64,000 bases of DNA from Membranipora membranacea (Eukaryota > Bryozoa > Gymnolaemata > Cheilostomatida > Membraniporidae), in the NCBI GenBank assembly GCA_914767715.1, contig OU612067.1, positions 6,138,001 through 6,202,000 on the forward strand, given 5' to 3'. The notes under the pieces are model-generated. The model searched no databases, was not told the origin of the DNA, and worked only from the letters and a program-made list of their open reading frames with translations. Of this stretch, positions 3,262-40,920 are shown one piece after another. Position numbers and translations under genes: made by a program. The stretch's first letter is position 1, and each line of letters opens with the position of its first letter.

Positions 3262-6200
3262 CTAAGACCCATAAAGATCATTGTCTACGAGGTTTGTTGG
3301 GTTCTCTTTTGATTTATTTTCGACCAGGATTGGAGCGTAGGTGTCCTGCACTTCAGCTTCAGCAGCTAGCCTGTAAACAAAAAGAACAGTGATATTCATA
3401 GACTTAAATTCAGTATTTTTGTTGCTGACCTCATCATTTGGTAATATTATGGCAGCGAGAGTCCATTTGCAGATTATGTCCAATCAAATTCTAAGGAAGG
3501 GGCTATTCTAATCTGGGTTCTGAATTTAGGCACTCAGTTGGTGAGTGGTGACAGTGACAACCCTGGATAATTACTGCCATTTATACCAGGCATGCTAAAA
3601 GATTGTGATGCCTTTATTCTATCAAAATTTTGGATACTAGAGGTGTGTCTATTGAGGCTGAAAGAGAAAAAAAGAAAAGCTCACCTATCGATTGTGGCAG
3701 TATTGTAGTATTCAGCTTCTCCCTCCTCAAAAGTATCGTCTACATTACCATACATGTTTTGTTCACCAACCATAACGCTACCACAATGATATGAGGCAAC
3801 TGTATCATAATCAGTTGTAACATTTGAGTATGTTGAAGCCTCCAAGTTCTCTTTAGCGTCTCCACCTCTATCAGGAGTGGGTGCTGATCCGAGACCTCCT
3901 ACACAATCAGACGCCATCAAGTAATCTGTAAGTAGATCAATTTTGCAGAAATAGAACTGATGCTTAATTTCAACATTGCGGTTCAAGTGTTTTGAGAAAA
4001 TTTGTTTCTGGGGATCAATGCAGTTCAAGCATTTTGATATTATTTGTTTGTAAGGTATTGTTAAGTTAGGATTGTATTGTTTACAAAGAGTCAATCGCTC
4101 TACTTGTTTGGTACAATTGTTTACAGGGCTCTCAACCTGGGAGGATCCAAATCCTAAGTTTTGCCTATACCACGTCATGTAGTAGCAAAACACCCTATGC
4201 ATGAACAGGTGAGGGATTTTGGGGCTGTGGTAGCCTTCCCACCAAGGGTTCGCCGCAAAAACCTAGAGAGCAATTTATGGCTCTACAGATGAATTCTATT
4301 GGTTTTAAGGTTGACATTGTCAGTTTACATATATGTTAGCAGCTAGATCAAGAATCAACTGAATTCCATAACTTATATGAATAATATGTGGGGAAATCTG
4401 AGTTTTAAGCTCATATTCCGAAAACCCCTGAGTTGCCTGAGTTGAATCCAAAAATCAGAGTAACTCGGCTAAATCTGAGTGATTGAAAACCCTGCTATTT
4501 ATGAAGATCAGATTTGACCATCAGTAGTACTGTCTTTGACAGTTAACCGATATATGCATTCTCATTTGATATAGTATTATTGAAACATTTTATATGAATG
4601 AAAAATACACAATTGATAAAAATATTATAAAAAAAAACTCATTAATAATGACAAGAATGTTTGAAATTTAAGTGATTTTATATACATGTATAAACTGTAC
4701 AAGTTGTACATGTGAAAGAGGCCCTGTAATAGAAATCTTGTTTTCTTCTGACGCTAGATTGATTGAAAACACAGGACATAGAGATGCATAATTCTTACAA
4801 TAAACTTACTATTAGAAATGACTTTGGAGTGTATTATTGTTTCAAGGTCATCAGCGGGTGATTCATATATTCCCTCTGTTTCCATTTGCTCAGCTTGTAA
4901 GGCTTTCCTGAAGAAGCAAAATTGGTAAAGTAAACTTTCCATGAGCTGAGAAACTGAGAAATTCAACGCATCACACAACTTTGACTCATGACTGGTAGGC
5001 GAATCAGTGCAGCATTCCCATAAGCCACAATGTAATTTCACCTTTCCATCGGAGAACACAGGCCAAACACTTTGACAGGCTAATTAGCCTGACTTCTCTG
5101 TAATATCTTGGGAACTGCATTGTGGGAAACTCATTAACATCAAATGAAATCAGAGACCAGCAATCTGTCATGAATCGTACTTACTGTTGTTGCTGCTGTG
5201 AGTTAACTCTCTTGCGTCGGATAATGAAGATCATTACAACAGCAGCGATAATGACTGCTGCCACTGCAGACCCTACACCTGCTCCAACCACGGCTGAGCT
5301 CCCACTTTGAGTGGTCCCAACCGAATAATCTTTGTGTGCATCAGCAGTTACTATGAGAAATAAGGCAGACAGACAAAGTGTTACATATTATTTGAATATT
5401 ATTGCTTGGGTCGGTGGTAGTGTCTGCAGCATTTGACGAATACCACTATGGCAACCTGAATAAAACCCTCTACTCACCCAAATGTAAATGGAGAAAATTT
5501 AAAAGAATAGGTAGGAATAAGCATATCAGGAAACGTGAATTTTTAATTTATTGGGCCCATATAATTGAGCGGTATCAACACTCACCTGACAAAGAATAGT
5601 TGGTAGTACTTTCAGTGGAGCTGTAAGTAGTAGAACTAGTTTCACCGGATTGTGAAGCAGGGCTGGTGATGATGGTGGAATGTGTAGAGGTATCGTCTGT
5701 AGTCTCTGCAGTTGATGATGTGCTGTAAGAGGTTGTTGAGGACGTGCTGTAAGAGGTTGTAGAAGACGTGCTGTAAGGGGTTGTTGCACCAGGTTGGCCA
5801 GGTGAGATTGAAGCATCCGTTGCTACAAAGTACCAGCAAGCCAATCAATTATAGTAACATAACGTTGTCCATTAATTTTGTCATGTGGCAGCAGAAAATT
5901 GCTGTAACATTGTAGGTAAACATGCAAACTTGAATAATCAATTGGATGAGCAGAGTATCACGACTTTGCCTGCTTGGATGATTGCTCATATCCAAGCAAA
6001 ATGCAGGGCACATATTTTGTTTGAAACAAAAATGAATACCCTATGAATCTATGGAGTACACAGTTTTAGTTTGCTCAGCTGTGAAGCGATCGTCTAAGGG
6101 GATCTTACTCTGTTTAACCACCGTAGGGTGAAAATTTGACTTGCCCACGCTGAATGAAGAAAAACAAACAACTTTTGTTGTAAATGTTGAGTGTAAGTAA

Positions 6201-7194
6201 AAGGGAGAAAAATGCATACAGTACCATCCTACAGAGCTTTTTTCCATTTTTGTTCATGTCTACTTGAGGCCAGTAAATTAACACAGAATTTGGCAACATG
6301 TAATATTGTCTGTGATATGTAATAAATCAATCAATCAACCAGTTGGTCATGTCTGACAAATCAGCCTAGATACACATTATCTGTGGCAGTGAATAAGTGG
6401 CATAATGGTACGTTTAGATTTGACTGGGATGTGATAGCATTACTTGTACTGGTGAGTGCTATCATGCCAACAAGCATCATCAGAACTCACCTGTGTAATT
6501 GATTCTGAAGTAAGCTTCATAAGGATTTAAATATGCATTGTAAAGGAAACTAATTTTGATCCTCGTATCTCCGGGAACAGTAGTAGTGTTGTATATTTCT
6601 CTTCCATTGTTTAGACGCCCACAGAAACCAATGTCATTGTTTCGCTCATCAATCCATAGAAAGTAATTCCAGGCATTGCATGATCCATTTTCAGTTTGAA
6701 TATAAAAGCTCCCGTCAACCTTTATCTCAACTGAGACAGGGTTATTCATCTCAAGGATGACAGTACATTCAGGATTGCCAGTGTCTGTAGATGTGTTTGG
6801 ATAGCCTTGTGATTGTATGTAGCCTGTAGATGGTGCCTGTACCATTATTGTCTGAATACGGTTCTCACACATTGTTGTGACAGGTCCTGTTGGTAAAATT
6901 TAGCCATTATAATATATTATAGCCATTATTTATTGATAAAATTATTGAATACTCATGTACGAGTGTCATTGTGTAGCAACAAACAAGCAAACAAGAGCAC
7001 TACTGAACCAAATCCTGTCACTATACCAAATTGGACACCAGAAAAGCTGTTTTACCTAATTTTTATATTACAACATCTGTTCATAGTTTACCTGCCGGGG
7101 GTGTTGCCAGTGCCAAATCACTTTGAAACGCAACCAAAATAAGATATACCATTTGAGCTCGTCCCATCAGCACTAAATTCTTCCTCAGCTGCAT
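3262..7194 (-). CDS. Receptor A: single-CUB type I membrane protein with long tyrosine-motif tail
   Basis: Seven exons join in frame: 7194-7092 (signal peptide), 6886-6491 (CUB), 5822-5586 (Ser/Thr-rich stalk), 5350-5185 (membrane span), 4907-4810, 3925-3685 and 3370-3262, giving about 449 residues. The leader starts MQLRKNLVLMG and ends near ALATPPAG. The CUB domain has four Cys (MCENR, ECTVI, SCNAW, FCGRL) and GYIQSQGYPN near its start. The stalk repeats TTSYSTSS. The span is followed by IIRRKRV and a glutamine run. The tail has IYESP, TYSNV, MYGNV, YYNTA, TYAPI and a C-terminal DNDLYGS. YxN motifs suit Grb2-type SH2 domains and YxxP motifs suit Crk-type ones (family knowledge), so a phosphotyrosine signalling role is likely but inferred. 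Its ectodomain nearly matches B and C, while its tail matches the E/G type. No frame break was seen. Confidence 0.8.
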
Positions 7195-8883
7195 TTTGAG
7201 TTGCTATTGTGGAGAACGAAATGATGTGATCCGAGGCGATGATATGTGTAATAGTCTGTCATGTCACTCCAGATAGGACAAAAAACTCCTGAACTGTTCT
7301 TATCAAACTCAATGCGATTCGTTGAGAAGAGATAATGATTGAATTTATGGCTCTGAGTATTAGATTTGCAGATGTGAAGGAGCTATATCAACGAGGAAGT
7401 TCCTACAGAGTAATAATTTGATGATACCCATTTATTTGAATTCAAATTTGTTAACAGCTAGAGTTTTTCGTTACACCACCAAATAAAGTGATCTAATTAA
7501 AGTTATTTCATGTTAAAGTTGAGTATTTTGAACCTCCTCTAACATTTTTATAGTATAGCGTCAGGTGCCAATGACAGCTCAAGGGTGTAAACAAGGAGCT
7601 AGCCCTCCCTTATGTTCCGTACCAAATTTTTGCTATGTTTAGTTACTCTAAACCATAAATCTCCCTGAGCTTTGGTCAAACTGTCCCTTTATCAGGCAAG
7701 CTGCTGTCCAAGTGTTCAATCTAGAAGTGTACCCCTTTTATCAAACTCCTAAACATTTTTATATTTTATGTATATATATATCTATATATGTATTCTATCA
7801 ATTATAATTTATATTAATGGTCCTACCTCACGGGTTCAAACATCAGCCTTAAATCTTCAAGCCTGCCAACCAATTGTTGTTCTGATGTTTATTAGTGCTT
7901 ATAAGCCATGGATCAATAATATCTCATATATTTCTTTCCCATCAGCACAGAAGAAGCTGAATCTTGTAGATTGCCAAATCAAAAAGTATATATTATGTAT
8001 GGCTCATTTCCTGCTGCTATGATGCCAACAAAATGAAATCAATTCTAAAAAGCGGGAAAAGACCTGTCTGTAATACCTGCATAGAGGCTAATCTCTGTCT
8101 TGATGAGCTCACCAAGGAAGCTCGTCAAGAAAGGCTACTTACGGTCTTGACTGGCCTTGGTCTATAGCACAGGACCTGATCAGGTCAGTTATCCTACCTC
8201 TTACACTGTTGTGATAACTCCCATATATAAAAGTCAAGATCGTGTCAGTATCAGCGCCAGGATATGAAATGATATGATATGAAGTCCCAAATGAGCTTAT
8301 TCTGACATGAATCAATTTTCACATTTTCAACCCCCATTATTGAGCATTCTAGAACTACGAGCCTGTATTGGACTGGAACAACCAATGTGACCGATGGCGG
8401 ATGGTGATAGAACCTCATGTTATATCTTATGATGCTATGTCATTAAAAAGTATATGCTGACTTTTTTTGCAGATATTTATACTTAGATTGGCAACCAGAG
8501 TCATATCATTAGAAAAGTTTTGCACTCAGTGCCAGAAAACAAAAGAAACAAAAAAAACAGAAAAAAGTTAAATGGAATGTCATTACCGTTGTTGATCAAG
8601 TTGATAACATATGGTTGATTAGCAATGTTGTAGATGGTGATGATGATAATAAAATGGCACTACCAGCAACCCAGCTAGCATGCTACAATAATATGGTTGA
8701 ACTTAATAAAGTCAGCTTTAAACAGTGTACAGCAAGTCAATATTAGCTCTGTGATCAACGAAAATGTGACTACTAGCATCCGTTGGGTTGGTATGGTTGG
8801 TATGTGACTAATTTTTTTGTTTGTTCAGAAAGGTAGGTCTTACACCGACATCACAATTCTGAGCCATACATTCCAGTACAACA
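7195..8883. other. Upstream region of receptor A, duplicated in the array
   Basis: No coding exon found. This block is repeated at about 12278-14000 and, interrupted, at 18140-20587. It must hold the promoter of A on its left side and the 3' end of B on its right. A short AT dinucleotide tract lies near 7765-7790. The copies stay alike along most of their length, so the promoters of A, B and C should be similar. Confidence 0.55.
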
Positions 8884-11800
8884 TTAAAGATTGTAATAAT
8901 TAGTGTAATCGATAATCTGTATTGTGTTGTACACATGGTCATCTTCACGCTGCTGTCTGGACTTCGTAGATTCATAAACTTGTTCTGTTTGATTTCCATC
9001 CCCTGAATGCTGTAAAACATACACATAAATGTATTTTGTACTACTTTTGTGAGGAGGCAGTATTAGTCAATGTGCTTGATTTTATTGGCTGGCGATTTGT
9101 CAAAGGTAGGCTGGCATTTGTAAATCAGCTGCAATACACTCACTATTTTTTCTCCGAAGGGGGACATTCCGCCATTGCAAGTGTCAGCCAAATTCTATAT
9201 CATGGCATTTGTAAATCAGCTGTAATACTCTCATTATTTGCTTGTTTGTTTTTCTCCAAAGAATGACATTACGCCGTCGATTGCTATAGTCAGCCCAATT
9301 TTCTATCATCTCATCTCTACCAAATACTTACATGACGTAAAGAAATATTGTAATAAGTATCCTCTTTATTCTGTATGGTGTTGTACACATGATCATCTTT
9401 ACCCTGCTGACTGGGCTGGGCTGATTCATACACATGTACTGTTTGATTGACCCTTCTACAATGTTATAAGTTGAATAGGTAGTTTGCACACAGTCAAAAG
9501 CATTCTAATAATCTATCAGATCAACCTCATGACACTTTCAATTACCATACATATCAAAGATATCTGATTACTCATAATTTTCACACCGAGGACTTATTCT
9601 TCTCCAGAATATAAATGAAGTACCTAAAATCACATATAATTATCTTTCTAAAATCAAACTTACTGTCCTCTTTGAAAGTTTGCTCTCTTGCGCTCTTCGA
9701 TTATCAAAACAATAGCAGCCACAGCAACAACGACTGCCACAACACAAGAGACTACAGTTATGCCGACCGTGTTAAAGCTTCCACCAGGGGCAGTCACAGA
9801 AGAATTATTCCTGTAGGCATCTGAAGTTATTTCTTGAAATGAAGCAAACAGGAATAGACATGCAGAATGCAAGTTTGCACCCATGAACTTTACCCAGATC
9901 ACAGGTGATGGTAGTGGCTAATATTGAAATGTATTTTCCAGCAAACAAGGAATAGGACTAAAAATACTCAATTTTAAAAGACTGCAACAAGACTTAGACC
10001 AAGCTGATTCATTTTGCCAGCGTTGAAGTTGCCCTCTGACATACTGACATACTGCAGCCTTTTTTTGCAATTTGCATTGCAATAGAGGAGTGCAACTCCA
10101 ACGATTGCCAGATGGATCAAACCTATCAATCAAAAATTCTGATGACAAGATCATCTACATGATTTGAGGCAATCGTTTGAAAGGCTATATTAATTAAGAA
10201 ATTTAAAATACATTGGCCAGAAGGATGATAATATCACAGAGTAAGGATATCCTTACTCTGTGATAATATATTGCTATTGAATTTTCATATAATGTAATTG
10301 CACTGCAGTTTCCATTGATGGAGGTTACATATGCGAGAGTCTGTAGAAATTTGCCATAATATAATTATATCCTCTATTTTGGGTGACTTATTTTCGATAG
10401 GGAAAAAGGCGAATTTAAGACCTGATGGTCATTTTCAAGCTAGTTTAGCTTGTCTATTAGACCCTTTAAGCTCATCAGTATCAACACTCACCTGATAACG
10501 AGTGGTTGTGAGAACTTTCAGTGGAGCTGTAAGTAATAGAACTAATTTCACTGGGTTGTGAAGGAGGGCTGGTGATGATGGTGGAATGTGTAGAGGTACC
10601 GCCTGTAGTCTCTGCAGTTAAAGATGTGCTGTAAGTGGTTGTTGAAGATGTGCTGTAAGTGGTTGTTGCACCAGGTTGGCCAGGTGAGGTTGATGCATCC
10701 GTTGCTACAAAGTACCAGCAGGCGTGTTAATGATATTAACATAGTATTTACAAAAGTTTTATCATCACATGGCACCAGAAAGTTACTAAATGCATTCCTA
10801 GCCCTTGATATTTAAACATACCATGTACAAAATTAAGGTATCAAACATGCCATGTACCTGAATTATCATTTGGTTGAGCAGAGTTTAATTACTCTTCTGC
10901 TTGGATGCTTAGTGATATACCATAATGCAATGCAAAAAGAATTCCCTGTTAACCGATGCAAGGTCATTAGACGCAGACATGGTTTGCTCAGCTGTGCAGC
11001 GGTATCTCAAAAGGCCTGTAATAGGCTTCCTGAGATAATTGTCTAACTCTGTTGAACAATTATAAGGCTGAAATATGTCTTTCTCTCGTTGAAAAATGAG
11101 GATCAAACGACTTTTCCATAACATTTTTCGACACTAAACTAAGGTCGAAGTCTAAGGCCGTAAATGAAACATCTGCCAACAAATTTTGCATGGCTCACTG
11201 AGGCTAGGAGGATTAGGGAATTTATCAGACTCAACAGAATCGCATTGAATCGGTGCCATATATGAATGTATAGCAGCAAAGATTGTAAGGTGGGAGGCAT
11301 TGGTTCATACCCCTCTGCAGCAGATCATCCTTTAAGTTTTATCATCATGGAAATTGTAAGCGTCCGTTCAAATTGAGAGCAGACAACTCATTTGATGCCC
11401 TCCATTCGACGCATCAAAGCACAGTGATTTAGGGCCATCGAATCATCTTCTGGACTCACCTGTGTAACTGATTCTGAAGTAAGCTTCATGGTACGTTTAG
11501 ATTTGACTGGGATGTGATAGCATAACTTGTACTGGCGAGTACTATCATGCCAACAAGCATCATCAGAACTCACCTGTGTAATTGATTCTGAAGTAGGCTT
11601 CATAAGGATTTGAAAATGAATTGTAAAGGAAACTAATTTTGATCCTCGCATCTCCGGGAACAGTAGTAGTGTGGTATATTTCTCTTCCATTGTTTAGACG
11701 CCCACAGAAACCAATGTCATTGTTTCGCTCATCAATCCACAGAAAGTAATTCCAGGCATTGCATGATCCATTTTCAGTTTGAATATAAAAGCTCCCGTCA

Positions 11801-12277
11801 ACCTTTATCTCAACTGAGACAGGGTTATTCATCTCGAGGATGACAGTACATTCAGGATTGCCAGTGTCTGGAGATGTGTTTGGATAGCCTTGTGATTGTA
11901 TGTAGCCTGTAGATGGTGCCTGTACCATTATTGTCTGATCGTGGCTCTCACACATTGTTGTGACAGGTCCTGTTGGTAAAATTTAGCCATTATAATATAT
12001 TATAGCCATTATTTATTGATAAAATCATTGAATACTCATGTACGAGTGTCATTGTGTAGCAACAAACAAGCAAACAAGAGCACTACTGAACCTAATCCTG
12101 TCACTAAACCAAATTGAACACCAGAAAAGCTGTTTTACCTAATTTTTATTTTACAACATCTGTTCATAGTTTACCTGCCGGGGGTGTTGCCAGTGCCAAA
12201 TCACTTTGAAACGCAACCAAAATAAGATATACCATTTGAGCTCGTCCTATCAGCACTAAATTCTTCCTCAGCTGCAT
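8884..12277 (-). CDS. Receptor B: single-CUB membrane protein with short duplicated tyrosine tail
   Basis: Six exons join in frame: 12277-12175 (signal), 11969-11574 (CUB), 10704-10492 (stalk), 9832-9664 (membrane span), 9455-9332 and 9009-8884, giving about 376 residues. The signal and CUB exons nearly match receptor A. The stalk repeats TTTYSTSS. The span reads ITVVSCVVAVVVAVAAIVLI and is followed by ERKRANFQRGQ. The tail is made of two homologous exons, each with a VYES motif, a DDHVYNTIQ block and a closing YYN; the last exon ends TNYYNL. The VYNTI motifs resemble ITIM-like sites but have His at -2, so they are not strict ITIMs. Compared with A, only the tail and span differ strongly. No in-frame stop or frame break was found. 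Confidence 0.8.
9112..9320. repeat. Intronic tandem duplication between the two tail exons of B
   Basis: Two adjacent copies of roughly 100 bases, each starting GGCATTTGTAAATCAGCTG and including TTCTCC.AA....GACATT, lie at about 9112-9205 and 9206-9320. Receptor C has the same two copies near 14229-14440. The matching intron of D near 20820-20945 shows one copy, so the duplication arose in the B/C lineage. Confidence 0.65.
10232..10265. repeat. Perfect 34-base palindrome in the stalk-span intron of B
   Basis: The sequence is a perfect palindrome centred on GATATC, with 17-base arms beginning TATCACAGAGTAAGGAT. The same palindrome is present in D at 21849-21882, but the aligned site of C (near 15350) lacks it, with only the flanking AATAT left. 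Confidence 0.85.
11454..11490 (-). pseudogene. Orphan fragment of a CUB exon 3' end
   Basis: About 35 bases match the last part of the CUB exon of B, including the splice donor and the codons for YFRI.YTG, but the rest of the exon is missing. It sits just downstream of the intact exon, separated by an intron stretch that is repeated as well, so a small tandem duplication with loss is likely. Confidence 0.6.
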
Positions 12278-14000
12278 TTTGAGTTGCTATTGTGGAGAAC
12301 GAAATGATGTGATCCGAGGCGATAATATGTGTAATAGTTTGTCATGTCACTCCAGATAGGACAAAAACTCCTGAACTGTTCTTATCTAACTCAATGCGAT
12401 TCGTTGAGAAGAGATAATGGTTGAATTTATGGCTCTGAGTATTAGATTTGCAGATGTGAAGGAGCTATATCAACGAGGAAGTTCCTACAGAGTAATAATT
12501 TGATGATACCCATTTATTTGAATTCAAATTTGTTTACTGCTAGAGTTTTTCGTTACACCACCAAATAAAGTGATCTAATTAAAGTTATTTCATGTTAAAG
12601 TTGAGTATTTTGAACCTCCTCTAACATTTTTATAGTATAGCGTCAGGTGCCAATGACAGCTCAAGGGTGTAAACAAGGAGCTAGCCCTCCCTTATGTTCC
12701 GTACCAAATTTTTGCTATGTTTAGTTACTCTAAACCATAAATCTCCCTGAGCTTTGGTCAAACTGTCCCTTTATCAGGCAAGCTGCTGTCCAGGTGTTCA
12801 AACTAGAAGTTAGTGTACCCCTTTTATCAAATCCTACACATTGTTATATTTTATGTATATATATATATATATATATATGTTTTCTATCAATTATAATTTA
12901 TATCAATGGTCCTACCTCACAGGTTCAATCATCAGCCGTAAATCTTTTGCGATCTGCTGAACCAATCTGCAAGCCTGTCAGTGTCAACCAATTTTTGTTC
13001 GGATGTTTATAAGTGCTTACAAGCCATCAATCATATCACATATAATTCTTTCCCATCAGCACAGAAGAAGCTGAATCTTGTAGGTTGCCAAAGCAAAAAG
13101 TATATATTATGTATGGCTCATTTCCTGCTGCTATACTGCCAACAAAAGGAAATCAATTCTAAAAAGCGGGAAAAGACATGTCTGTAATACCTGCATAGAG
13201 GCTGATCTCTGTCTTGATGAGCTCACCAAGGAAGCTCGTCAAGAAAGGCTACTTACGGTCTTGACTGGCCTTGGTCTAGCACAGGACTTGATCAGGTCAG
13301 TTATCTACCTCTTACACTGTTGTGATAACTCCCATATATAAAAGTCAAGATCGTGTCAGTATCAGCGCCAGGATATGAAATGATATGATATAAAGTCCCA
13401 AATGAGCTTATTCTGACATGAATCAATTATCACATTTTTAAGCCCCATTATTGAGCATTCTAGAACTACGAGCCTGTAATGGACTGAAACAACCAATGTG
13501 ACCGATGACGGGTGGTGATAGAACCTCATGTTATATCTTGTGATGCTATGTCATTAAAAAGTATATACTGACTTTTCTTGCAGTTATTTATACTTAGATT
13601 GGCAACCAGAGTCATATCATTAGAAAAGTTTTGCACTCAGTGCCAGAAAACAAAAGAAACAAAAAAAACAGAAAAAAGTTAAATGGAATGTCATTACCGT
13701 TGTTGATCAAGTTGATAACATATGGTTGATTAGCAATGTTCTAGATGGTGATGATGATAATATAATGGCACTACCAGCAACCCAGCTAGCATGCTACAAT
13801 AATATGGTTGAACTTAATAAAGTCAGCTTTAAACAGTGTACAGCAAGTCAATATTAGCTCTGTGATCAACGAAAATGTGACTACTAGGATCCGTTGGGTT
13901 GGTAGGGTTGATATGTGACTACTTATTTTGTCTGTTCAGAGAGGTAGGTCTTACACCGACACAGACATCATAATTCTGAGCCATACATTACAATACAACA
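12278..14000. other. Upstream region of receptor B, second copy of the array spacer
   Basis: No coding exon found. It aligns almost throughout with 7195-8883. A TA dinucleotide tract near 12855-12878 is longer than in the first copy. Promoter elements of B are expected here but I cannot point to them. Confidence 0.55.
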
Positions 14001-17000
14001 TTAAAGATTGTAATAATTAGTCTCATCGATATTCTGTATTGTGTTGTACACATGGTCATCTTCGCGCTGCTTGCTGGACTTCGTAGATTCATAAACTTGT
14101 TCTGTTTGATTTCCATCCCCTGAATGCTGTAAAACACACACATAAATGTATTTTGTGCTACTTTTGTGAGGAGGCAGTATTAGTCAATGTGCTTGATTTG
14201 ATTGGCTGGTGATTTCTCAAAGGTAGGCTGGCATTTGTAAATCAGCTGTAATACACTCACTATTTTTTCTCCGAAGGAGGACATTCCGCCATTGCAAGTG
14301 TCAGCCAAATTCTATATCATTGCATTTGTAAATCAGCTGTAATACTCTCATTATCTGCTTGTTTGTTTTTCTCCAAAGAATGACATTACGCCGTCGATTG
14401 CTATCGTCAGCCCAATTTTCTATCATCTCATCTCTACCAAATACTTACATAACGTAAAGAAATATTGTAATAAGTATCCTCTTTATTCTGTATGGTGTTG
14501 TACACGTGATCATCTTCAGCCTGCTGACTGGGCTGGGCTGATTCATACACATGTACTGTTTGATTGACCCTTCTACAATGTTATAAGTTCAATAGGTAGT
14601 TTGCACACAGTCAACAGCATTTTAATAATGTACATGAGAATCTATCAGATCAACCTCATGACCCTTTCAATTACCATGCATGTCAAAGATATCTGATTAC
14701 TCATAATTTTCACACGAAGGACTTATTCTTCTCCAGAATATAAATGAAGTACCTAAAATGACATATAATTATCTCTCTTAAATCAAACTTACTGTCCTCT
14801 TTGAAAGTTTGCTCTCTTGCGCTGTTTGATTATCAAAACAATAGCAGCCACAGCAACAACGACTGCCACAACGCAAGAGACTACAGTGATGCCGACCGTG
14901 TTGAAGCTTCCACCAGGGGCAGTCACAGAAGAATTATTCCTGTAGGCATCTGTGGTTATTTCTTGAAATAAAGCAAACAGGAATAGACATGCAGAATGCA
15001 AGTTCGCACCCATGAACTTTTCCCAGATCACAGGTGATGGTAGTGGCTAATATTGAAATGTCATTTCCAGCAAACAAGGAATAGGACTAAAAATACTCAA
15101 TTTTAAAAGACTGCAACAAGACTTAGAGCAAGTTGATTCATTTTGCCAGCGTTGAAGTTGCCCTCTGACATACTGCAGCCTTTTTTTGCAATTTGCATTG
15201 CAATAGAGGAGAGCAACTCCAACGATTGCAAGATGGATCAAACCTATCAATCAAAAGTTCTGATGACAAGATCATCTACATGATTCGAGGCAATCGTTTG
15301 AAAGGCTTTATTAATTGAGAAATTTAATATACATTGGCCAGAAGGATGATAATATATTGCTATTGATTTTCCATATAATGTAATTGCACTGCAGGTTCCA
15401 TTGCTGGAGGTTACAGGATGAAGATACATATGTGAGGGTCTGTAGAAATTTGCCATAATATAATCCTCTATTTTGGGTGACTTTTTTTCGATAGGGAAAA
15501 AGGCGAATTTAAGACCTTATGGTCATTTTCAAGCTAGTTTAGCTTGTCTATTAGACCCTTTCGTTACCCTGTAGTTGTGAGAACTTTCAGTTTTAGTTTA
15601 TTGGGCCCATATAATTGAGCAATATCAACACACACCTGACAAAGAGTAGTTGGTAGTACTTTCAGTGGAGCTGTAAGTAATAGAACTAATTTCACTGGGT
15701 TGTGAAGGAGGGCTAGTGATGATGGTGGAATGTGTAGAGGTAGGTAGGTAGGAATAAGCATATCAGGAAACGTGAATTTTTAGTTTATTGGGCCCATATA
15801 ATTGAGCGGTATCAACACACACCTGACAAAGAGTAGCTGGTAGTACTTTCAGTGGAGCTGTAAGTAATAGAACTGATTTCACTGGGTCGTGAAGGAGGGC
15901 TGGTGATGATGGTGGAATGTGTAGAGGTATCGCCTGTAGCCTCTGCAGTTGGTGATGTGCTGTAAGAGGTTGTTGAAGACGTGCTGTAAGAGGTTGTTGC
16001 ACCAGGTTGGCCAGGTGAGGTTGAAGCATCCGTTGCTACAAAGTACCAGCAAGCCAATAAATTATAGTAACATAACGGTGTCCATTTGTTTTGTCATGTG
16101 GCAGCAGAAAATCGCTGTAAAAATTGTAGGTCAACATGCAAACTTGAATAATCAATTGGATGAGCAGAGTATCACGACTTTGCCTGCTCGGATGATTGCT
16201 CATATCCAAGCAAAATGCAGGGCACATATTTTGTTGAAAACAACAATGAATACCCTATGAATCTATGGAGTACACAGTTTTAGTTTGCTCAGCTGTGAAG
16301 CGATCGTCTAAGGGGATCTTACTCTGTTTAACCACCGTAGGGTAAAAATTTGACTTGCCCACACTGAATGAAGAAAACCAAACAACTTTTGTTGTAAATG
16401 TTGAGTGTAAGTTAAAGGGAGAAAAACGCATACAGTACCTTGTACACACTTTAAACGATATTTTGTTTTAAACAATCCTACAGAGCTTTTTCCGTTTTTG
16501 TTCATGTCTACTTGAGGCCAGTATATTGACAGGAATTTCGCAACATGTAATATGTAATGATATGTAATCAATCAATCAATCAACCAGTTGGTCATGTCTG
16601 ACAAATCAGCCTAGATACACATTATCCGTGGCAGTGAATAAGTGGCATAATGGTACGTTTAAGCTGCGTTTACATGTGAGACAAATCGGCTAATAATACC
16701 AACTCCGACAGAGATTATGAATCTGCTCTATAATCGTTGTCTGTCAGCATGTCAACGATACGCTATTTACACACTGTTCATGCCTAACCGATTTCAACAC
16801 AAACTTCCAACTCAACTTGTCTCTGATTGGCTAGTGAGACAACTAGTTGGTTTATTCAGTAGTAGTATTAGCTAGTAACTAGTAGTAACTAGTTAGTAAT
16901 TCATAGCTGGAGAGTGGAGTCTCCTTCACTAGTCTCCCTAGTTGAAAGGCTACTGTTGTGCCCCTGCAGACCACTGACCAGGGAGGGTGGGACTGAGACT

Positions 17001-18139
17001 GACAGAGAGTCATGTTTAGTAATGATTCATCATCTGATGAAGATGTTATAATAGCAGCAGCAGCAATAACTGTTATAACTATATTGCTGTACGTTGCTGC
17101 TAAGGACAAGGAAAGGGTGAGAGAAATATAATGATCAATCACGAATCATCATTACTTATACTCATTTATTGGCTGAACCATTCATAATCGTTAAGATCTG
17201 TCGTTCACTTGTGACATGGTCACAAGTGAACGATTTTGAACAATACAGATTTAAACACCGATTTAAACACAGATTAGCTGTTTACACGGTCAGTCAAATC
17301 GATGACCTGTGTCGGAGTTGTTATTATTAGCCGATCTGTCGCACATGTAAACGCAGCTTTAGATTTGACTGGGAAGTGATAGCATAACTTGTACTGGTGA
17401 GTACTATCATGCCAACAAGCATCATCAGAACTCACCTGTGTAATTGATTCTGAAGTAAGCTTCATAAGGATTTGAAATTGAATTGTAAAGGAAACTAATT
17501 TTGATCCTTGTATCTCCGGGAACGGTAGTAGTGTTGTATATTTCTCTTCCATTGTTTAGACGCCCACAGAAACCGATGTCAGCGTTTCGCTCATCAATCC
17601 AAAGAAAGAAATTCCAGGCACTGCATGATCCATCTTCATTAGTTTGAATATAAAAGCTCCCGTCAACCTTTATCTCAACTGAGACAAGGTTATCCATCTC
17701 AAGGGTGACGGTACATGGAGTGCCAGTGTCTGTAGATGTGTTTGGATAGCCTTGTGATTGTATGTAGCCTGTAGATGGTGCCTGTACTATTATTGTCTGA
17801 TTGTGGCTCTCACACATTGTTGTGACAGGTCCTGTTGGTAAAATTTAGCCATTATAATATATTATAGCCATTATTTATTGATAAAATTATTGAATACTCA
17901 TGTACGAGTGTCATTGTGTAGCAACAAACAGGCAAGCAAGAGCACTACTGAACCAAATCCAAATACCAAATTGGACACCAGAAAAGCTGTTTTACCTAAT
18001 TTTTATATTACAACATTAATTTTGTTCATAGTTTACCTGCCGGAGGTGTTGCCAGTGCCAAATCACTTTGAAACACAACCAAAATAAGATATACCATGTG
18101 AGCTCGTCCCATCAGCACTAAATTCTTCCTCAGCTGCAT
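14001..18139 (-). CDS. Receptor C: single-CUB membrane protein, paralog of B
   Basis: Six exons join in frame: 18139-18037 (signal), 17831-17436 (CUB), 16035-15823 (stalk), 14961-14793 (membrane span), 14572-14449 and 14126-14001, giving about 376 residues, the same size as B. The CUB keeps four Cys but differs from A and B at several places, such as SHNQTII, GTPCTV, TNEDGSCS and YNSISNP. The stalk donor is GTGTGT, weaker than the GTGAGT of A and B. The tail carries two VYES...HVYNTIQ exons and ends TNYYNL. The CUB-stalk intron contains a 697-base inverted-repeat element and a partial second stalk exon. No break in the reading frame was found, so it should be functional if the introns are spliced correctly. 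Confidence 0.77.
15590..15780 (-). pseudogene. Partial duplicate of the stalk exon of C
   Basis: A repeat of about 185 bases carries the 3' half of the stalk exon, its donor and the following intron start (TTTATTGGGCCCATATAATT), next to the full copy at 15823-16035. It breaks off at a GTAGGTAGGTAGG run at about 15738-15750 and has no acceptor that I can see, so it is probably skipped. Confidence 0.65.
16662..17358. mobile_element. Non-autonomous inverted-repeat element (MITE), PIF/Harbinger-like
   Basis: A 697-base insert in the CUB-stalk intron of C is absent from the aligned introns of A and B. The ends are inverted repeats of about 50 bases starting AGCTGCGTTTACATGTG. The site is flanked by TTA at 16659-16661 and 17359-17361, where the empty site in A has a single TTA. 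A 3-base TWA target duplication is typical of PIF/Harbinger elements (family knowledge). It holds a further hairpin around 17200-17235 and no convincing transposase. Confidence 0.82.
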
Positions 18140-20587: not shown

Positions 20588-22696
20588 TCAAATACAGCAT
20601 TTAATATTGTAATAATTAGTTTCATCATCATTATTCTGTATTGTGTTGTATACATGATCATCATCACGTTGCTGGTTGGACTGGGTAGATTCGTAAACTT
20701 GTTCTGTACGATTTCCATCCCCTGAATGCTGTAAAACACACGTATGTATTTTGTACTACATTTTTGACGAGGCAGTATTAGACAATGTGTTTGATCTGAT
20801 TGGCTGGTGATTGGTCAAAGGTAGGATGGCATTTGTAAGTCAGTTGTAATACTCTCACTATTTGCTTGTTTCCTTTTTCTCCAAAGAATGACATTCCGTC
20901 ATCGATTGCAATAGTCTTACCCAATTTTCTATCATCTCATCTCTACCCAGTACTTACATAACGTAAAGAAATATTGTAATAAGTATCCTCTTTATTCTGT
21001 ATGGTGTTGTACACATGATTATCTTTACCCTGCTGACTGGGCTGGGCTGATTCATACACATGTACTGTTTGATTGACCCTTCTACAATGTTATAAGTTGA
21101 ATAGGTAGTTTGCTCACAGTCAACAGCATTCTAATAATGCACATGAGAATCTATCAGAACAACCTCATGACACTTTCAATTACCATGCATATCAAAGATA
21201 TCTGATTACTCATAATTTTCACACCCAGGACTTATTCTTCTCCATAAATGAAGTACCTAAAATCACATATAATTCTCTCTCTTAAATCAAACTTACTGTC
21301 CTCTTTGAAAGTTTGCTCTCTTGCACTGATTGCAGCCACAGCAACAACGACTGCCTCATCACAAGATACTACAGTGATGCCGACCATGTTAAAGCTTCCA
21401 CCAGGGGCAGTCACAGAAGAATTATTCCTGTAGGCATCTGTGGTTATTTCTTGAAATGAAGCAAACAGGGATAGACATGCAGAATGCAAGTTTGCACCAA
21501 TGAACTTTACCCAGATCACAGGTGATCATAGTGGCTAATATTGAAATGTCATTTCCAGCAAACAAGGAATAGGACTAAAAATACTCAATTTTAAAAGACT
21601 GCAACAAGACTTAGAACAAATTGATTCATTTTGCCAGCGTTGAAGTTGCCCTCTGACATACTGACATACTGCAGCCTTTTTTTGCAATTTGCATTGCAAT
21701 AGAGGAGAGCAACTCCAATGATTGCAATATGAATCAAACCTATCAATCAAAAATTCTGATGACAAGATCATCTACATGATTTGAGGCAATCGTTTGAAAG
21801 GCTATATTAATTAAGAAATTTAAAATACATTGGCCAGAAGGATGATAATATCACAGAGTAAGGATATCCTTACTCTGTGATAATATATTGCTATTGAATT
21901 TTCATATAATGTAATTGCACTGCAGTTTCCATTGATGGAGGTTACATATGCGAGAGTCTGTAGAAATTTGCCATAATATAATTATATCCTCTATTTTGGG
22001 TGACTTTTTTTCGATAGGGAAAAAGGCGAATTTAAGACCTTACGGTCATTTTCAAGCTAGTTTAGCTTGTCTATTAGACCCTTTAAGCTCATCAGTATCA
22101 ACACTCACCTGACAATGAGTAGTTGTGAGAACTTTCAGTGGAGCTGTAAGTAATAGAACTAATTTCACTGGGTTGTGAAGGAGGGCTGGTGATGATGGTG
22201 GAATGTGTAGAGGTACCGCCTGTAGTCTCTGCAGTTGAAGATGTGCTGTAAGTGGTTGTTGAAGATGTGCTGTAAGTGGTTGTTGTAGCCTGTAGATGGT
22301 GCCTGTACCATTATTGTCTGATCGTGGCTCTGGCACATTGTTGTAACAAGTCCTGTTATGTAAAAAAGATAATACTAGCCGTAGCCATTATGAATTGATA
22401 ATTAGCGGATTCTCATGTAAAATGTCATTGTTTAACAGCAAAAGCCTAATACAAATATTTCATTCTGTAATTCAGATGAGTACCATCAAAGCAAAGTATA
22501 CTGAAACAAATCCTGTCAAAATACCAATTGGAGACCAGACAATCTCATGTGCCAGGATCGATATTACAGCATTTGTTCAGAGCTTACCTGCCGGAGGTGT
22601 CGCCAGTACCAAGTTTATTTGAAACACAAGATAAGCCAGAATAAATTGCATCATTTGAGATCTTCCAATCAGCACAAAACTCCTCCTCAGCTGCAT
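20588..22696 (-). pseudogene. Receptor D: CUB-deleted paralog of B and C
   Basis: Recognisable parts: signal exon 22696-22588 (intact, MQLRRSFVLIG...ATPPAG), a fused exon 22352-22109, membrane exon 21449-21297, tail exons 21081-20958 and 20728-20588. The fused exon begins as CUB (TTMCQSHDQTIMVQ) but after STGY jumps into the stalk, so almost the whole CUB, an intron and the stalk start are gone. The joint is out of frame (244 bases), and the CUB frame runs to an early stop. The membrane exon is 16 bases shorter than in B and C, has Asp-Glu in the span (SCDEAVVV) and is also frameshifted. The tail exons are open, ending NYYNIKCCI. D is therefore a broken gene, but its tail is the nearest relative of the B and C tails. 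Confidence 0.8.
21849..21882. repeat. Second copy of the 34-base palindrome (in D)
   Basis: Identical to the palindrome at 10232-10265, at the matching intron position of D. Confidence 0.85.
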
Positions 22697-28484: not shown

Positions 28485-31124
28485 GGTGTTATCCAGCAGT
28501 TATGTCCTACAAGATCCTATCAGCAGTAAAAAATCTGTCACTTGTCACACAGCTTAGCAATAGAAACCAAATGGCATGTAACATTCTATCAACACAGCCT
28601 TAGATGATTAACAAGGATGACCTCACATAAGCACTCATACAAAACAAGGAAGTAAACAGTTATAAATTTGAAGTGGTAAATGTCAAGCACGCAAATTGAC
28701 CTGCCTGGTGACAAAAACAGGCGAGATGATTTACTTATAGCATAAACATGAAAATATGCAGGAAGTTGGTTTTATAAGACATCAAACAGACATTAACGAG
28801 GGAGAATTTATGCTACAGGCTATTTGTTCTCATGTGTTTCTCATCAGATTTTTGTAACCTACGTCTAACACTAAATATAAAATTGAGTAAGTTGACTATG
28901 AGAAAAGATAAATAATATGGATTGTAACAGGAAAAGTACACTTGGCCCGGGTGCATAGGTTTGTGATGGGAGCACTCTGCCCTAGTAGCTTACAAGCTAC
29001 CATCGTAGAAATAATATACCTGCGTCAAGAATGATGCATTGATACCTTACCATGGCGCGCTCAGGCAGATGTTTCAACCAAATAGTGGCGTGGCAATGTA
29101 TGACATTGTTGTTATGATTTCATACGGCCATATTTTGAGTGTGATTTCCGAACTATAGCAAATTTCAGATATATGAATTGAATGGTTGTGTGTATGTGTG
29201 ATGACTTGTGTTCACGGCAGCTCTGTGAGTTGGCAAGGACAACCAAGCCTCCGGGTTCTGGAAAATGCAGTAGGTTGGAACATTTTTTTCATAGCAGAAA
29301 CTTGATATGTAGATATCACTTCAGCTATACCACAGATTAAAATAATAAAAAGTTACAGACATCTTTGTCAAGTTGTTGTATTGATTCCAGTAAACTTCCA
29401 CGATCGAAAAAACAGTGGCTGTTATCATCAGACAACGAACTGGCTGACAAGCTATTCTGATCAGAAAAATTATTCTACTAATTTGTCATTGTGAGTTGTG
29501 ACCCCACAAGCGGATTGACATTTCTGATATGTCGTTTCTGATTGGCTGTTGCTCAACGAACTTCGAATTTTCAAACAAGGAAACAATATCACATTTAGAA
29601 ACAGCCCACAAATTTTGATAACTAATGCGTTATGTAGCCAGATTTAGAGGTGACTAAAATTATTTATTGGATGTCATCATTTCAACAAAGAGGAAGTAGG
29701 GAGCAATGTTGGCTGTACATGTAGATAGGATTGTGGAGAGGTTGTGCAGTACTGAGTCATGTTAGTAACATCTATGGTATTCATATCTAGAACATCCTGA
29801 AATGGCCACGCGCATAACGATGTTGCAAATCTCAAGAATATGACATAAATCTGGATGATACTACCATATCTATGAAAAACAACCAAGTCAATGTTGTTCA
29901 GTTTCATTTCTAGTGTTTTTACACATGGTGTATATATTCTTGTTGATCTGAATTGTCTGTTGGTGACTATTTTGAAACTAATGTACAAGCCTGCCAACCA
30001 GAAGCACACTGAGTTAGATATTAACAATGTTTTCCAAAACTTCATCAGAAATCTATCAGTAAATTGGGTTATCCATGTCAATAAAAATATAGTGATAAGT
30101 AATGGATAGGTACAATATCATGATTGCATGAGACTGAAGTCTGTAGAGCCATCAAAGAGCAATTGTTTTAATGTTTAAAAAACATGTCTGCTATTAAACG
30201 AGGTACAGATACTCATGTGGATATTTTATATATAGTATGATTATGAAATATATGATTAAGTAATATATATGTATTATAGATTATTATGTAATATATAATA
30301 TGATTTTTAACCAATTACATGTATGTTATGTTATATATATTTAGCACGTTTCCAGCTTTTTGACATGAATTTGGTGATCCATTAAAATATTGAAAAATCT
30401 TAATCCTCAGAATTATTAAACTCTACATGAAATCGCCTAAAATAATGGCATAAAAAGAAGACAAAGTATTTTTGTAATATTCATTGAACTCATTTGGGAA
30501 AACCCTTTCATTTTCTCAAATTAAAGATGATTATTTAGTGACACATGAGTGCAAAATTGGGATTTAAGATCATTCTTCATGTGAGACATCGGCCATTCCA
30601 TTTGAGTTTCTGATCAGTATAAAAAGCAGCTTACATGTAAGTACGCGATTTAACCATTCAACCTTTTAATATGATTGACTAAACAACCATAAAGTTTTTA
30701 GGGAAGCTATAAGGACCAATGCTAATATTCATAGCAATGAACAAAAAAATTAAATTTACTCGGACAAGGACATTATTGAATGAAATAACCTACTTCAAAG
30801 CGCGAAAACCCAGGGTCTAGGGTAAGTTATCTCCCCTTTTCCAGATTAAGAGTTAATCTGTAACATGGGATATAACATACTCTAGACACTTGGGAATCGA
30901 TTATAGCATTCAAAAATGTCTTTGAGCGAGTTGATTTAGTTTTTTTATCCATTGTTATGAGAATACTTTGATTTGAACAGTGGTTAATATTTGGTTTCCT
31001 AAACACTTAAACAAACTTTGATGTTTGACTGCTGTAATTTGGCTATCACTATAATAGATTTGCCTTGATTTCCCGATATGAATCATGCCTTGCAGACATT
31101 GGAGTCAACAATGACCTTACAGGG
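28485..31124. other. Intergenic region between F and E
   Basis: No supported gene. The part at about 29520-29780 resembles 55545-55760, upstream of gene G. Around 30200-30345 the sequence is almost pure A and T. An open frame of 134 codons at 29677-30081 on the minus strand has no recognised domain and I do not call it a gene. Confidence 0.5.
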
Positions 31125-34100
31125 TTAAATATTTTCATATTCGTCATCAATGTGCTGTGAGGGAATCGTGTTGTTCACATGATCATCTTTGTGCTGACGA
31201 CTTGTCTGGGCATTCACTCTTTCTATCTGATTCACCTCCCTATAATAATAATAAAAGAAAGATCAGTGATTGATGAGCCTTATGTGCTTTTACCTGCTGT
31301 TGAAAATATGGCTTATTTTCAGTACGAAATGCAGGCAGCTGCCATCAAGTGCTGTGTAGGATCATTTAGGAACTATCATGGTTATATTTCTTTTTTTATG
31401 GCCTTACAGGGTTGAATTGTTTTCATAACTGTCATCAATGTGCTGTAAGGGTATCGTGTTGTACACATGATCGCCCTCGCTCTGATGTCGTGGTCAAGCA
31501 GACTCATAAACTTGATCTGCATTACTCTTCTCCCTGCAATGATTTGAAAATGAGGTAACGATTGCTGAGCCCTTCTCTGCTTCAGTTTTCTTGATTCATT
31601 CGTGATTAAGCGTAGAAAAAATTTATCATACTGATATACTGAAAAGCTTATATACTATACAAAAATTTAATCTGAATATATTACTTAGCTCCTCGAAAAT
31701 CTACTGATTACATCCCACCTTTTTCAGCCCACAACAACAATAACAGAACCACGATGTAGCTGAAAGATGACAGAGGTGGCATATAAATTATGATCTTCTA
31801 TGATCATGTCTATTACTAGCAATATTTTTTAGTAAACATACTGATGATTGGTTTGTGCTGTCAGTCTCCTTTTCATCACAGCGACGTAGATTAGGGCTGC
31901 TGCAATAGCAGAGGAAGCAACTCCTGTAACGATTCCTGCTCCTATAACAATCGGTTCAATGTGTGACTCTTCTTTCATTTTTCTTTTCTTTTGATCTTCC
32001 GAAGCTGCAACATAAAATTAAAATAATGTCAATTTAGGCAGCCACAAGGGCATATTGTACTTCCCAAATCCCCTGCTCCTGCAAGGCCAAATATTCTACT
32101 ATTATGAACAAGAAGTAGCAGAAACAAATAAAAAATCTGTTAGTGATGGTTTGTAGCTGGAATTGAAAAGAAATTATATCTAATCACTTGATATTAGTAT
32201 GAAAGTCGCGGTATAAAAAGCAGATATTTCTCCATATTTCAAAATAGTAAACTTCTATGTGTCAGTGACATTGTACTAATGAAAAGAAAAGAACAAATCA
32301 CCAAATAAGTCACTGGTGCTGGTGTTGCGATGAACGTGATGTTTGTTTCTCGTGCTTCAACAACATTAATCAGAGGAAAATTATCAGCAGTTTGAAATAA
32401 GACTTTTTCCTCTCTGATCAATCTGTGATTTATTGGTGACAACTCAGCTGAACAGCCAACTCAAGGCCAGCGAACCTGCGAAGTTTTACTGGATACGTCG
32501 GTTCTCAAAAACATTTAAAAAAAAACAATTTTCACTGTCATTTGGTGGCAAGATGTAGTTTCAACTTATGAAAAGAGGGATACATATCATTTATTACAGT
32601 TAAATTAGTTGTCGTTATTTGCTTCGGTACGAATGTGTTTCTCAGAAGAATCGTTCTTGGCAGCAATGTTGATGATGTTGCTAAAACAACATAATCATAT
32701 GATATTATTTTATCTACAACACTAGTGACATGCTATCCTCAACAAGTCGGGTGCACAAGGACCACCATAGGATCAGGAGAAAGAAACAATCTGGCCACCT
32801 TACGGTCTCATCAATTAAAAAGAGGATGGTAATAATTAGCAGTTATTTTCTAATATTCAAAACACAAAACTGGTGTGGACGAAATGGATGATTATCTTTA
32901 TTCATGCATCACTCACCTTGATACTCAAAAAGAAAAGATCCTCTTTTGTCATCAGAATCGGTCTGGAGCTAAAATGTAATATTCTGAGTGCTAGCTGTCA
33001 GTGGTAGAGCCCACCTACTTTGAGCTGTTCCCTGGCATATTCTTATCATTTCTGGACCATTTATAATTGTAAGCCTGTCACTACACCGCCCTCCGTTCCT
33101 CAAGTTATTGACCCGAACTATGAAGGTGAAGGTTGTTCCAGGCTGGATCCTGGTCAGTGTCAGTATTGAGTTAATATCTCTCCTGTATGGTTGGACGCCT
33201 GTGTGGCTTATGATGAAGCCCTGGCCCAATGCATCATATGTCTGATGTTGATTTCTACCATCAAAGTCAATTGGTGTCCGGACTGAAAATAATTGACACA
33301 CTCATTAGAATTATATGACATATACAAAACCATTACAAGCAAATCAAGCAAAGTTTGAGCCATGTAATTAAAAAAAATTAAGGCTAATGTTGTAACAGGT
33401 TGGGGATGGTGAGATGGAACAATCGGTCAAACCACGATTGCTATTCACTCCCAACCGACTGGTGTCAGAGAAGTTGTGGAGTTGTTTTTGTTGTTTTTTC
33501 CAGCCCTAAGAACCCTAGGGTGTATGTATACCTCTCCTGAAGGTAAATAATGGTCCAGGCTGGATTATAGTCAGTGTAAGTGTTTAGTCAACATGGTCAA
33601 TGGTCAATGGTATATACCTGTGTGGCTCACAATGAAACATTGGTCTAGAGCAGCCATGCTCAACCTCGGCCAAATTGGCCACTAAGGCAAAGACGGTCGT
33701 TTGTCTGGCCAATTGGACCCACTCCATCACGACCTACAGTTCAGCCTCATGGGCTTAAAGTGAATGATGCACCTGGCAGTGACAAGGAAGTGTCCTTACC
33801 TATTATGTAAACTTGTCACCTGTGTACCTGACTCTAAAGTAGTCATTAAAGCTCTCCTCTGGAACTGAATCTCAGCGCTACTAGTCGATGAGCTGCATAA
33901 GTTCATAGTGACTGTCCCAGTTCCCTTTCCCCTCGACCAAGTTTGGTTCATTTGCCTGCATTCAGAGGTGCTCCTGATCAACTAGTCACGCCACAGTGAT
34001 CAGTGGATGGGAGCAATTGGAATGCAGGCAATTGGATTAAACTTGATCTAACTTTCACCTCACAGATTGAGTTATTTGACAACAATTCTTATTGCTACAA

Positions 34101-40759: not shown

Positions 40760-40920
40760 TACTGTTCCTAGTAAGATAGAGTAGACGTACTTGTGTTATT
40801 TCCAGACAAGATAGAGTCGGCCTACTCGTTATTTATTCCCAGGCAAGAGAGAGTAGACGTACTCGTAACATTCCCACTAAGATAGAGTAGGCGTACTCGT
40901 TATAGAGAGTTGGCGTACTC
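40760..40920. repeat. Minisatellite-like tandem repeat
   Basis: About five imperfect units of 20 to 50 bases share the core AGATAGAGTAGRCGTACTCG, ending with TTGGCGTACTC near 40920. Unit length varies. Confidence 0.65.

What the first reader, a model, noticed from the sequence alone, without database searches (positions are those of the whole stretch)
3262..18139. Near-identical ectodomains on different tails (A versus B and C): paired-receptor-like design
The signal and CUB exons of A and B differ at only a few codons, but A carries the E/G-type tail (YSNV, MYGNV, DNDLYGS) and B and C carry the VYES/HVYNTI tail. The switch happens in the stalk-span intron. Simple unequal crossing over between an A-type and a D-type gene would create B and C as hybrids. 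In vertebrates such pairs give opposite signals from one ligand.
Basis: partly seen in the sequence, partly recalled or inferred. Interest (0 to 1): 0.88.

Follow-up and report, generated by a model that had tools for sequence, protein, structure and literature searches.

The report
Hybrid CUB receptors with swapped tails
An invertebrate chromosome carries neighbouring cell-surface receptor genes with nearly the same outer domain but two unrelated signalling tails, apparently made by recombination between neighbours, much like the paired immune receptors of mammals; whether the two tails give opposite signals is not shown.

Summary
A, B and C are complete minus-strand gene models: signal peptide, one CUB domain, Ser/Thr stalk, membrane span, tyrosine-rich tail. 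A and B are 96-99% identical from 500 bp upstream through the CUB exon; their tails are unrelated. B and C match A at the 5' end and the decayed gene D at the 3' end (B: 111:3 and 66:0 diagnostic sites for A, then 0:16 in the stalk and 4:54 in the span exon). The switch is not at one place: B changes about 85 bp after its CUB exon, leaving a relic CUB-exon end; C changes after its stalk exon. Hybrid origin is well supported. New here: each B/C tail has two ITAM-spaced motifs (YNTI-x6/7-YYNI/L; shuffle P 0.0002-0.0004), and the genome holds Syk-like and SHP-2-like genes. But A's ITIM match is at chance level (P 0.32), so 'opposite signals' is unproven; the motif it shares with E and G is YxN[V/I/M]. 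Closest parallel: CEACAM1/CEACAM3-type pairs. New variant of a known kind; expression, ligand and assembly are unchecked.

The parts
7092..7194 (-). Gene A exon 1: signal peptide (ATG at 7194)
   Evidence: open frame, donor GTAAACTA
6491..6886 (-). Gene A exon 2: CUB domain
5586..5822 (-). Gene A exon 3: Ser/Thr-rich stalk
5185..5350 (-). Gene A exon 4: membrane span
   Evidence: only 61% identical to B's
4810..4907 (-). Gene A tail exon 1 (GIYESPADDL)
3685..3925 (-). Gene A tail exon 2 (STYSNV, TDYDTV, NMYGNV, AEYYNT)
   Evidence: E/G-type by alignment
3262..3370 (-). Gene A tail exon 3 (DTYAPI ... DNDLYGS, stop)
   Evidence: relatives at C3:4.40-4.43 Mb (E 0.001-0.13 genome-wide; 1e-7 to 4e-9 in the fetched 60 kb) and perhaps C3:32.60 Mb (E 0.64; read)
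12175..12277 (-). Gene B exon 1: signal peptide
11574..11969 (-). Gene B exon 2: CUB domain, A-type
   Evidence: 382/396 identical to A
11460..11488 (-). Relic 3' end of a CUB exon inside B intron 2: likely fossil of the A-type to D-type junction
   Evidence: TGAAGCTTACTTCAGAATCAGTTACACAG followed by GTGAGT, 28 of 29 bases as in A's CUB-exon end; the intron beyond it is a diverged relative of A's intron 2 (local score 61, best of 200 shuffles 34)
10492..10704 (-). Gene B exon 3: stalk, D-type
   Evidence: 0:16 diagnostic sites A:D
9664..9832 (-). Gene B exon 4: membrane span, no charged residue inside
9332..9455 (-). Gene B tail exon 1: HVYESA..HVYNTIQNKEDTYYNI (ITAM spacing x6)
8884..9009 (-). 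Gene B tail exon 2: QVYEST..HVYNTIQIIDYTNYYNL (ITAM spacing x7, stop)
18037..18139 (-). Gene C exon 1: signal peptide
17436..17831 (-). Gene C exon 2: CUB domain, A-type
   Evidence: 370/393 identical to A
15823..16035 (-). Gene C exon 3: stalk (mixed A/D sites 9:8)
15591..15745 (-). Junction zone of gene C: partial second stalk copy between A-type and D-type sequence
   Evidence: self-BLAST breaks
14793..14961 (-). Gene C exon 4: membrane span, D-type
   Evidence: 2:55 diagnostic sites A:D
14449..14572 (-). Gene C tail exon 1 (ITAM spacing x6)
14001..14126 (-). Gene C tail exon 2 (ITAM spacing x7, stop)
20588..22696 (-). Gene D, decayed: signal exon, CUB exon fused out of frame to stalk by a deletion, damaged span exon, ITAM-type tail exons (spacing 6 and 8)

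Best explanation
A, B and C are tandem type I membrane receptors with one CUB domain. Shown from sequence: B and C have the upstream DNA, signal and CUB exons of A and the span and tail exons of D, with two different junctions. Inferred: the ancestral neighbours were a D-type gene, whose tail carries ITAM-like repeats, and an A-type gene with a long YxN-rich tail; unequal recombination, at least twice, or once followed by conversion, made the hybrids, and D later decayed. Inferred function: A and B/C read the same or very similar ligand under similar promoters. On ligation B and C are phosphorylated at their paired tyrosines and recruit the genome's tandem-SH2 Syk-like kinase in cis (no charged residue in the span, so no DAP12-like partner is needed), while A docks Grb2-like (YxN) and perhaps SHP-2-like SH2 proteins. 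One recognition surface thus feeds two different outputs.
For: Complete exon models. Diagnostic sites and segment identities place the 5' halves of B and C with A and the 3' halves with D. Relic CUB-exon end at the B junction, followed by a diverged relative of A's intron 2. Two ITAM-spaced motifs in B and C: P 0.00039 and 0.00016 by residue shuffling; 0.002-0.009 for a single repeat. Spacings are 6 and 7 in B and C, 6 and 8 in D. The tail is confined to this locus: all 8 protein hits at E<=1 lie in the window, and 9 of the 39 genome-wide HVYNTI-type pattern hits are here, the total not being clearly above the reversed-pattern control of 38. Frames are kept: 0 of 6 pairwise coding indels break frame, 35 of 41 non-coding ones are not multiples of three. 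Syk-like kinase with SH2 pieces and SHP-2-like phosphatase in the same genome. CUB fold.
Against: No transcripts, proteins or ligands. Tail exons of B and C differ as much as their introns (8 non-synonymous, 2 synonymous; dN 0.041, dS 0.044), so purifying selection on the tails is not seen. CUB dN/dS 0.50-0.66 is not clearly different from neutral. The two ITAM repeats within a tail are duplicates and not independent. D resembles B at about 95-100% only from the stalk to tail exon 1 and at about 88% beyond, to about 20.1k, and its first 68 CUB bases are B/C-like: D has probably exchanged sequence with B/C later, so the direction of transfer is not settled. The relic is closer to A's CUB end (28/29) than a D-type CUB would be expected to be. 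Older relatives of the tail (window 31.4k, 38.8k) keep VYNTI-like halves, mostly lack the second YxxI/L and look decayed. No relative in the protein database.
Confidence: 0.6

Rival explanations
1. True paired receptors with opposite signs: A inhibits through ITIM/ITSM and SHP-2, B and C activate through ITAM and Syk.
For: A has STYSNV (ITIM consensus) and TDYDTV (ITSM consensus); SHP-2-like gene present; CEACAM pairs in mammals show the same anatomy (PMC2832619, passages).
Against: ITIM match expected in 32% of shuffled A tails, ITSM in 8%, both in 2.2%; D's second ITAM-type repeat also matches the ITSM consensus, so that match is not specific. E and G do not keep the -2 residue at the matching place (AEYANI, AQYSNM), though G has SLYGNI.
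Confidence: 0.3
2. Both tails give positive but different signals (A by Grb2-type YxN docking, B/C by Syk), so the family diversifies outputs without opposition.
For: YxN[V/I/M] is the motif shared by A, E and G; the Pfam GRB2-binding adapter GAPT is a sub-threshold match to B's tail (E 0.06); YYN[I/L] also occurs in B/C.
Against: No binding data; A also has YxxV/I sites.
Confidence: 0.3
3. Neutral by-products of tandem duplication: B and C are young hybrids on the way to decay like D and, apparently, the genes at 31-35k and 38-46k, with no selected function.
For: D is decayed and two further neighbours with this tail type look decayed; tails of B and C evolve at the intron rate.
Against: Open frames with AG/GT at every intron, and 0 of 6 coding indels out of frame versus 35 of 41 non-coding.
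Confidence: 0.2
4. Draper-like alternative splicing across the array: transcripts join one ectodomain to either tail, so the gene boundaries given here are not the real units.
For: The exon junctions from signal to tail have the same phases in A, B and C (1, 1, 1, 2; from the exon lengths), so such joins would stay in frame; Draper isoforms with ITAM or ITIM are recalled, not read.
Against: Each gene has its own complete set of exons, upstream copy and stop.
Confidence: 0.08
5. Assembly artefact: two haplotypes joined in tandem.
For: A/B 5' halves differ only by 1-3.5%, a possible allelic distance; no reads were available.
Against: B and C have different junctions, C has a private 0.7-kb element in intron 2, and the array lies in a 35-Mb contig; the CUB-exon search found no further close copy (other hits 48% identical or less). 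Alleles of one gene would not explain two unrelated 3' halves.
Confidence: 0.07

Closest known systems
Mammalian CEACAM1 / ITAM-bearing CEACAM pairs (CEACAM3, canine CEACAM28)
   Same: Near-identical ligand-binding exon, ITAM-like motif in the receptor's own tail, similarity attributed to conversion/recombination; in the canine pair the high-similarity region covers leader exons, intron 1 and about 1 kb upstream, as here (PMC2832619, passages)
   Different: Ig domains, not CUB; CEACAM1 has ITIM/ITSM, for A this is not established
KIR, LILR, PIR, PILR, SIRP, Ly49 paired receptors
   Same: Shared ectodomain, different cytoplasmic output (PMC3533184, passages); clustering of genes recalled
   Different: Activating members such as PILR-beta, SIRP-beta and NKG2C use DAP12; B/C carry the motif themselves
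Botryllus fester co-receptors (FcoR)
   Same: Invertebrate multigene receptors with ITIM or hemITAM tails and exchange of motif (PMC12065747, passages)
   Different: Ig and sushi ectodomains; hemITAM, not full ITAM repeats; motif swap by alleles and splicing
Hydractinia Alr family
   Same: Invertebrate allorecognition candidates with ITAM/ITIM-type tails (mentioned in PMC12065747; family details recalled)
   Different: Ig-like ectodomains (recalled)
CDCP1
   Same: CUB membrane protein phosphorylated by SRC kinases that associates with SHP2 (PMC4395315, title and start of abstract only)
   Different: No ITAM repeats known to me; no homology test made

Membership tests
CUB domain | CUB fold with paired cysteines | tested here: met
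ITAM-bearing receptor | YxxI/L-x(6-8)-YxxI/L in the tail | tested here: met
   Two per tail in B and C; spacing 6 and 7
ITAM-bearing receptor | Binds tandem SH2 of Syk family when doubly phosphorylated | not testable with these tools
   A Syk-like kinase locus with SH2 pieces exists at C11:17.33 Mb
ITIM-bearing inhibitory receptor (gene A) | [ILVS]xYxx[ILV] conserved in the tail | tested here: inconclusive
   One match, chance 0.32; not conserved at the same site in E and G
Paired receptors | Closely similar ectodomains on members of one cluster | tested here: met
   CUB exon 96.5% A/B, 94.1% A/C
Paired receptors | Tails of unrelated sequence | tested here: met
   A/B tail score reached by 133 of 500 shuffles
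Paired receptors | Opposite signalling outcomes | not testable with these tools
   No functional data
Paired receptors | Shared ligand | not testable with these tools
   Ligand unknown

The most novel reading that the evidence does not exclude
An invertebrate CUB-based paired-receptor system in which an ITAM-tail gene and a docking/inhibitory-tail gene repeatedly recombine so that the activating member always carries the current ectodomain of its neighbour: the CEACAM logic evolved independently, with a complement-type domain, outside vertebrates.
Probability: 0.3. Interest if true: 0.82.

Novelty: new variant of a known kind. Interest (0 to 1): 0.62.

Why it matters
Paired receptors are best known in vertebrates and are thought to arise under pathogen or self-ligand pressure. 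An array caught with two hybrid genes, a decayed relative of their tail donor and a likely junction fossil shows how such pairs can be made, in a genome that also holds Syk-like and SHP-2-like genes. It makes testable whether an invertebrate uses one CUB surface to drive two different tyrosine-signalling outputs.

Tried and rejected
Pfam gave no CUB above cut-off, resolved by profile and fold. A window scan against Rfam found nothing. Selection tests: CUB and tail dN/dS uninformative. The idea that A's tail is a clear ITIM tail was rejected as unproven. One common junction for B and C was rejected on diagnostic sites. Genome-wide HVYNTI pattern gave 39 hits against 38 for the reversed control; the 30 outside the window were not read. 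The top hit of the Syk-like kinase piece in the PDB was a record named EGFR (9p9u, E 5e-37, two stretches), above SYK at 6e-26; I did not check what that record is. An SH2 piece from the same locus scored best against SHP-2, so 'Syk-like' rests on the kinase piece plus SH2-bearing pieces in the same locus; no full gene model was built. Only 3 of the SH2 loci were opened. Papers: searches (20 of 82 listed; 15 of 105 listed; 8 of 123 listed), CC-licensed PMC only, listed no CUB receptor with ITAM repeats; that is not proof of absence. Species: not named by any tool; the mitochondrial COX1 (contig C18) reads with TGA=W, AGR=S, ATA=M, AAA=K, which fits a bilaterian invertebrate; the phylum was not determined. 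Foldseek 'pdb' was busy and not tried again after that; the second-look aligner was answered.
Full report
Setting. The window lies on C3 of an unnamed 339-Mb eukaryote assembly of 18 contigs; contig C18 carries mitochondrial COX1 whose code use (TGA=W, AGR=S, ATA=M, AAA=K) fits a bilaterian invertebrate. The genes studied are on the minus strand, in the order D, C, B, A.

The swap. From 500 bp upstream through the CUB exon A and B are 96.5-99% identical in coding and non-coding DNA alike; then similarity falls to 65% in intron 2 and 61% in the span exon; B and C stay at 94-97% from intron 3 to their stops. Gene D, the next one upstream, is 73-82% like A, B and C in its upstream DNA, signal exon and intron 1, but 88-98% like B and C in segments from the stalk to the tail. 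At sites where A and D differ, B follows A 111:3 upstream and 66:0 in signal plus intron 1, but D 16:0 in the stalk and 54:4 in the span exon; C follows A 105:4 and 62:3, is mixed in the stalk (9:8), A-like in the first 60 bp of intron 3 (23:1) and D-like in the span (55:2). So both are A/D hybrids, with different junctions.

Limits on direction. D is about 95-100% like B from the stalk to tail exon 1, about 88% beyond that to about 20.1k, and not clearly alignable further on. In the first 68 bp of the CUB exon the diagnostic sites are split (B 4:5, C 5:4). D has therefore probably exchanged sequence with B or C after they arose, and which copy was the donor in the middle part is not settled. 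That the ITAM-type 3' half is foreign to the A-type gene does not depend on this, since A's span and tail exons differ.

Junction fossil. About 85 bp into B's intron 2, A-type intron sequence stops and is followed by 29 bp, 28 of them as in the 3' end of A's CUB exon, with a donor site. What follows is a diverged relative of A's intron 2 (local score 61 against at most 34 in 200 shuffles; 59% identity in a full alignment). This is what a crossover between A's intron and the end of a paralogous CUB exon would leave. C instead has a partial second stalk copy at 15591-15745. Two ectopic recombinations, or one plus later conversion, fit. D lost most of its CUB exon by a deletion that joins it out of frame to the stalk, and part of its span exon.

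The tails. B and C each hold two repeats of VYES-HVYNTI-YYN[I/L] that fit YxxI/L-x(6-8)-YxxI/L: spacings 6 and 7; D has 6 and 8. Shuffling the residues gives two such motifs in 0.039% (B) and 0.016% (C) of trials, and one motif per single repeat in 0.2-0.8% (0.3-0.9% with tyrosines fixed). The repeats are duplicates, so they count as one origin. Genome-wide the tail is found only here: 8 of 8 protein hits at E<=1, and 9 of 39 HVYNTI-type pattern hits, the total being about the same as the reversed control of 38. Two older relatives at 31.4k and 38.8k look decayed and keep the first half better than the second. A's tail is of the E/G type (0 of 500 shuffles) and its last exon recurs in a cluster at C3:4.40-4.43 Mb and perhaps at C3:32.60 Mb. 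It has one ITIM and one ITSM consensus match, at chance-like rates (0.32, 0.08, both 0.022); what A, E and G share is YxN[V/I/M].

Function under selection? Coding indels among A, B and C are all in frame (0 of 6 pairwise counts out of frame; about three events) while 35 of 41 non-coding ones are not multiples of three. But substitutions do not show constraint: CUB dN/dS 0.50-0.66, tail B/C 2 synonymous and 8 non-synonymous.

Machinery. A scan for SH2 exons gave 44 matches. Of three loci opened, one encodes tandem SH2 plus a phosphatase domain like SHP-2 (PTPN11 E 8e-30 for one SH2 exon), one has SH2-bearing pieces plus a kinase piece whose best named family after one odd EGFR record is SYK (6e-26), its tested SH2 piece scoring best against SHP-2, and one looks like RasGAP (by eye).

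Reading. The most likely account is a CUB receptor array in which recombination has put one ectodomain on two unrelated tyrosine tails, B/C probably working through an ITAM-Syk route in cis. Sign opposition with A is possible, not shown. The nearest worked example is the CEACAM1 and ITAM-CEACAM pairs, where similarity spanning leader, intron 1 and upstream DNA is also reported (PMC2832619, passages). Invertebrate receptors with ITIM or hemITAM tails are known from Botryllus (PMC12065747, passages); they use Ig and sushi domains. I found no printed CUB receptor with ITAM repeats in the listings.

Noticed in passing
window 16661-17359: About 0.7-kb MITE-like element with 65-nt inverted arms (86% complementary) in intron 2 of gene C, not in A or B.
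   Followed up: partly
window 31100-34900 and 38400-46200: Two CUB genes that look decayed, with ITAM-type tail repeats (YNTI-x8-YENN, VNNTI-x8-YENI, HVYSTI).
   Followed up: partly
G000 C3:4.404-4.429 Mb (L025-L030): Tandem CUB membrane genes with a similar last tail exon (DYAPI..LIDNDLYGT), repeated YDMAGQV, DYTLAEE and proline-rich tail motifs.
   Followed up: partly
G000 C5:2.235-2.281 Mb: Four more exons of this CUB type (25-38% identical to A's); tails not read.
   Followed up: no
G000 C3:22.76-23.60 Mb: Large array of CUB exons in similar copies tens of kb apart (150 of 931 candidates scored).
   Followed up: no
window 57277-61611: Gene H: two CUB exons, a long TTS-rich repetitive stalk and a third, different tyrosine tail (AIYDTPVN, TVYSTP).
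   Followed up: no
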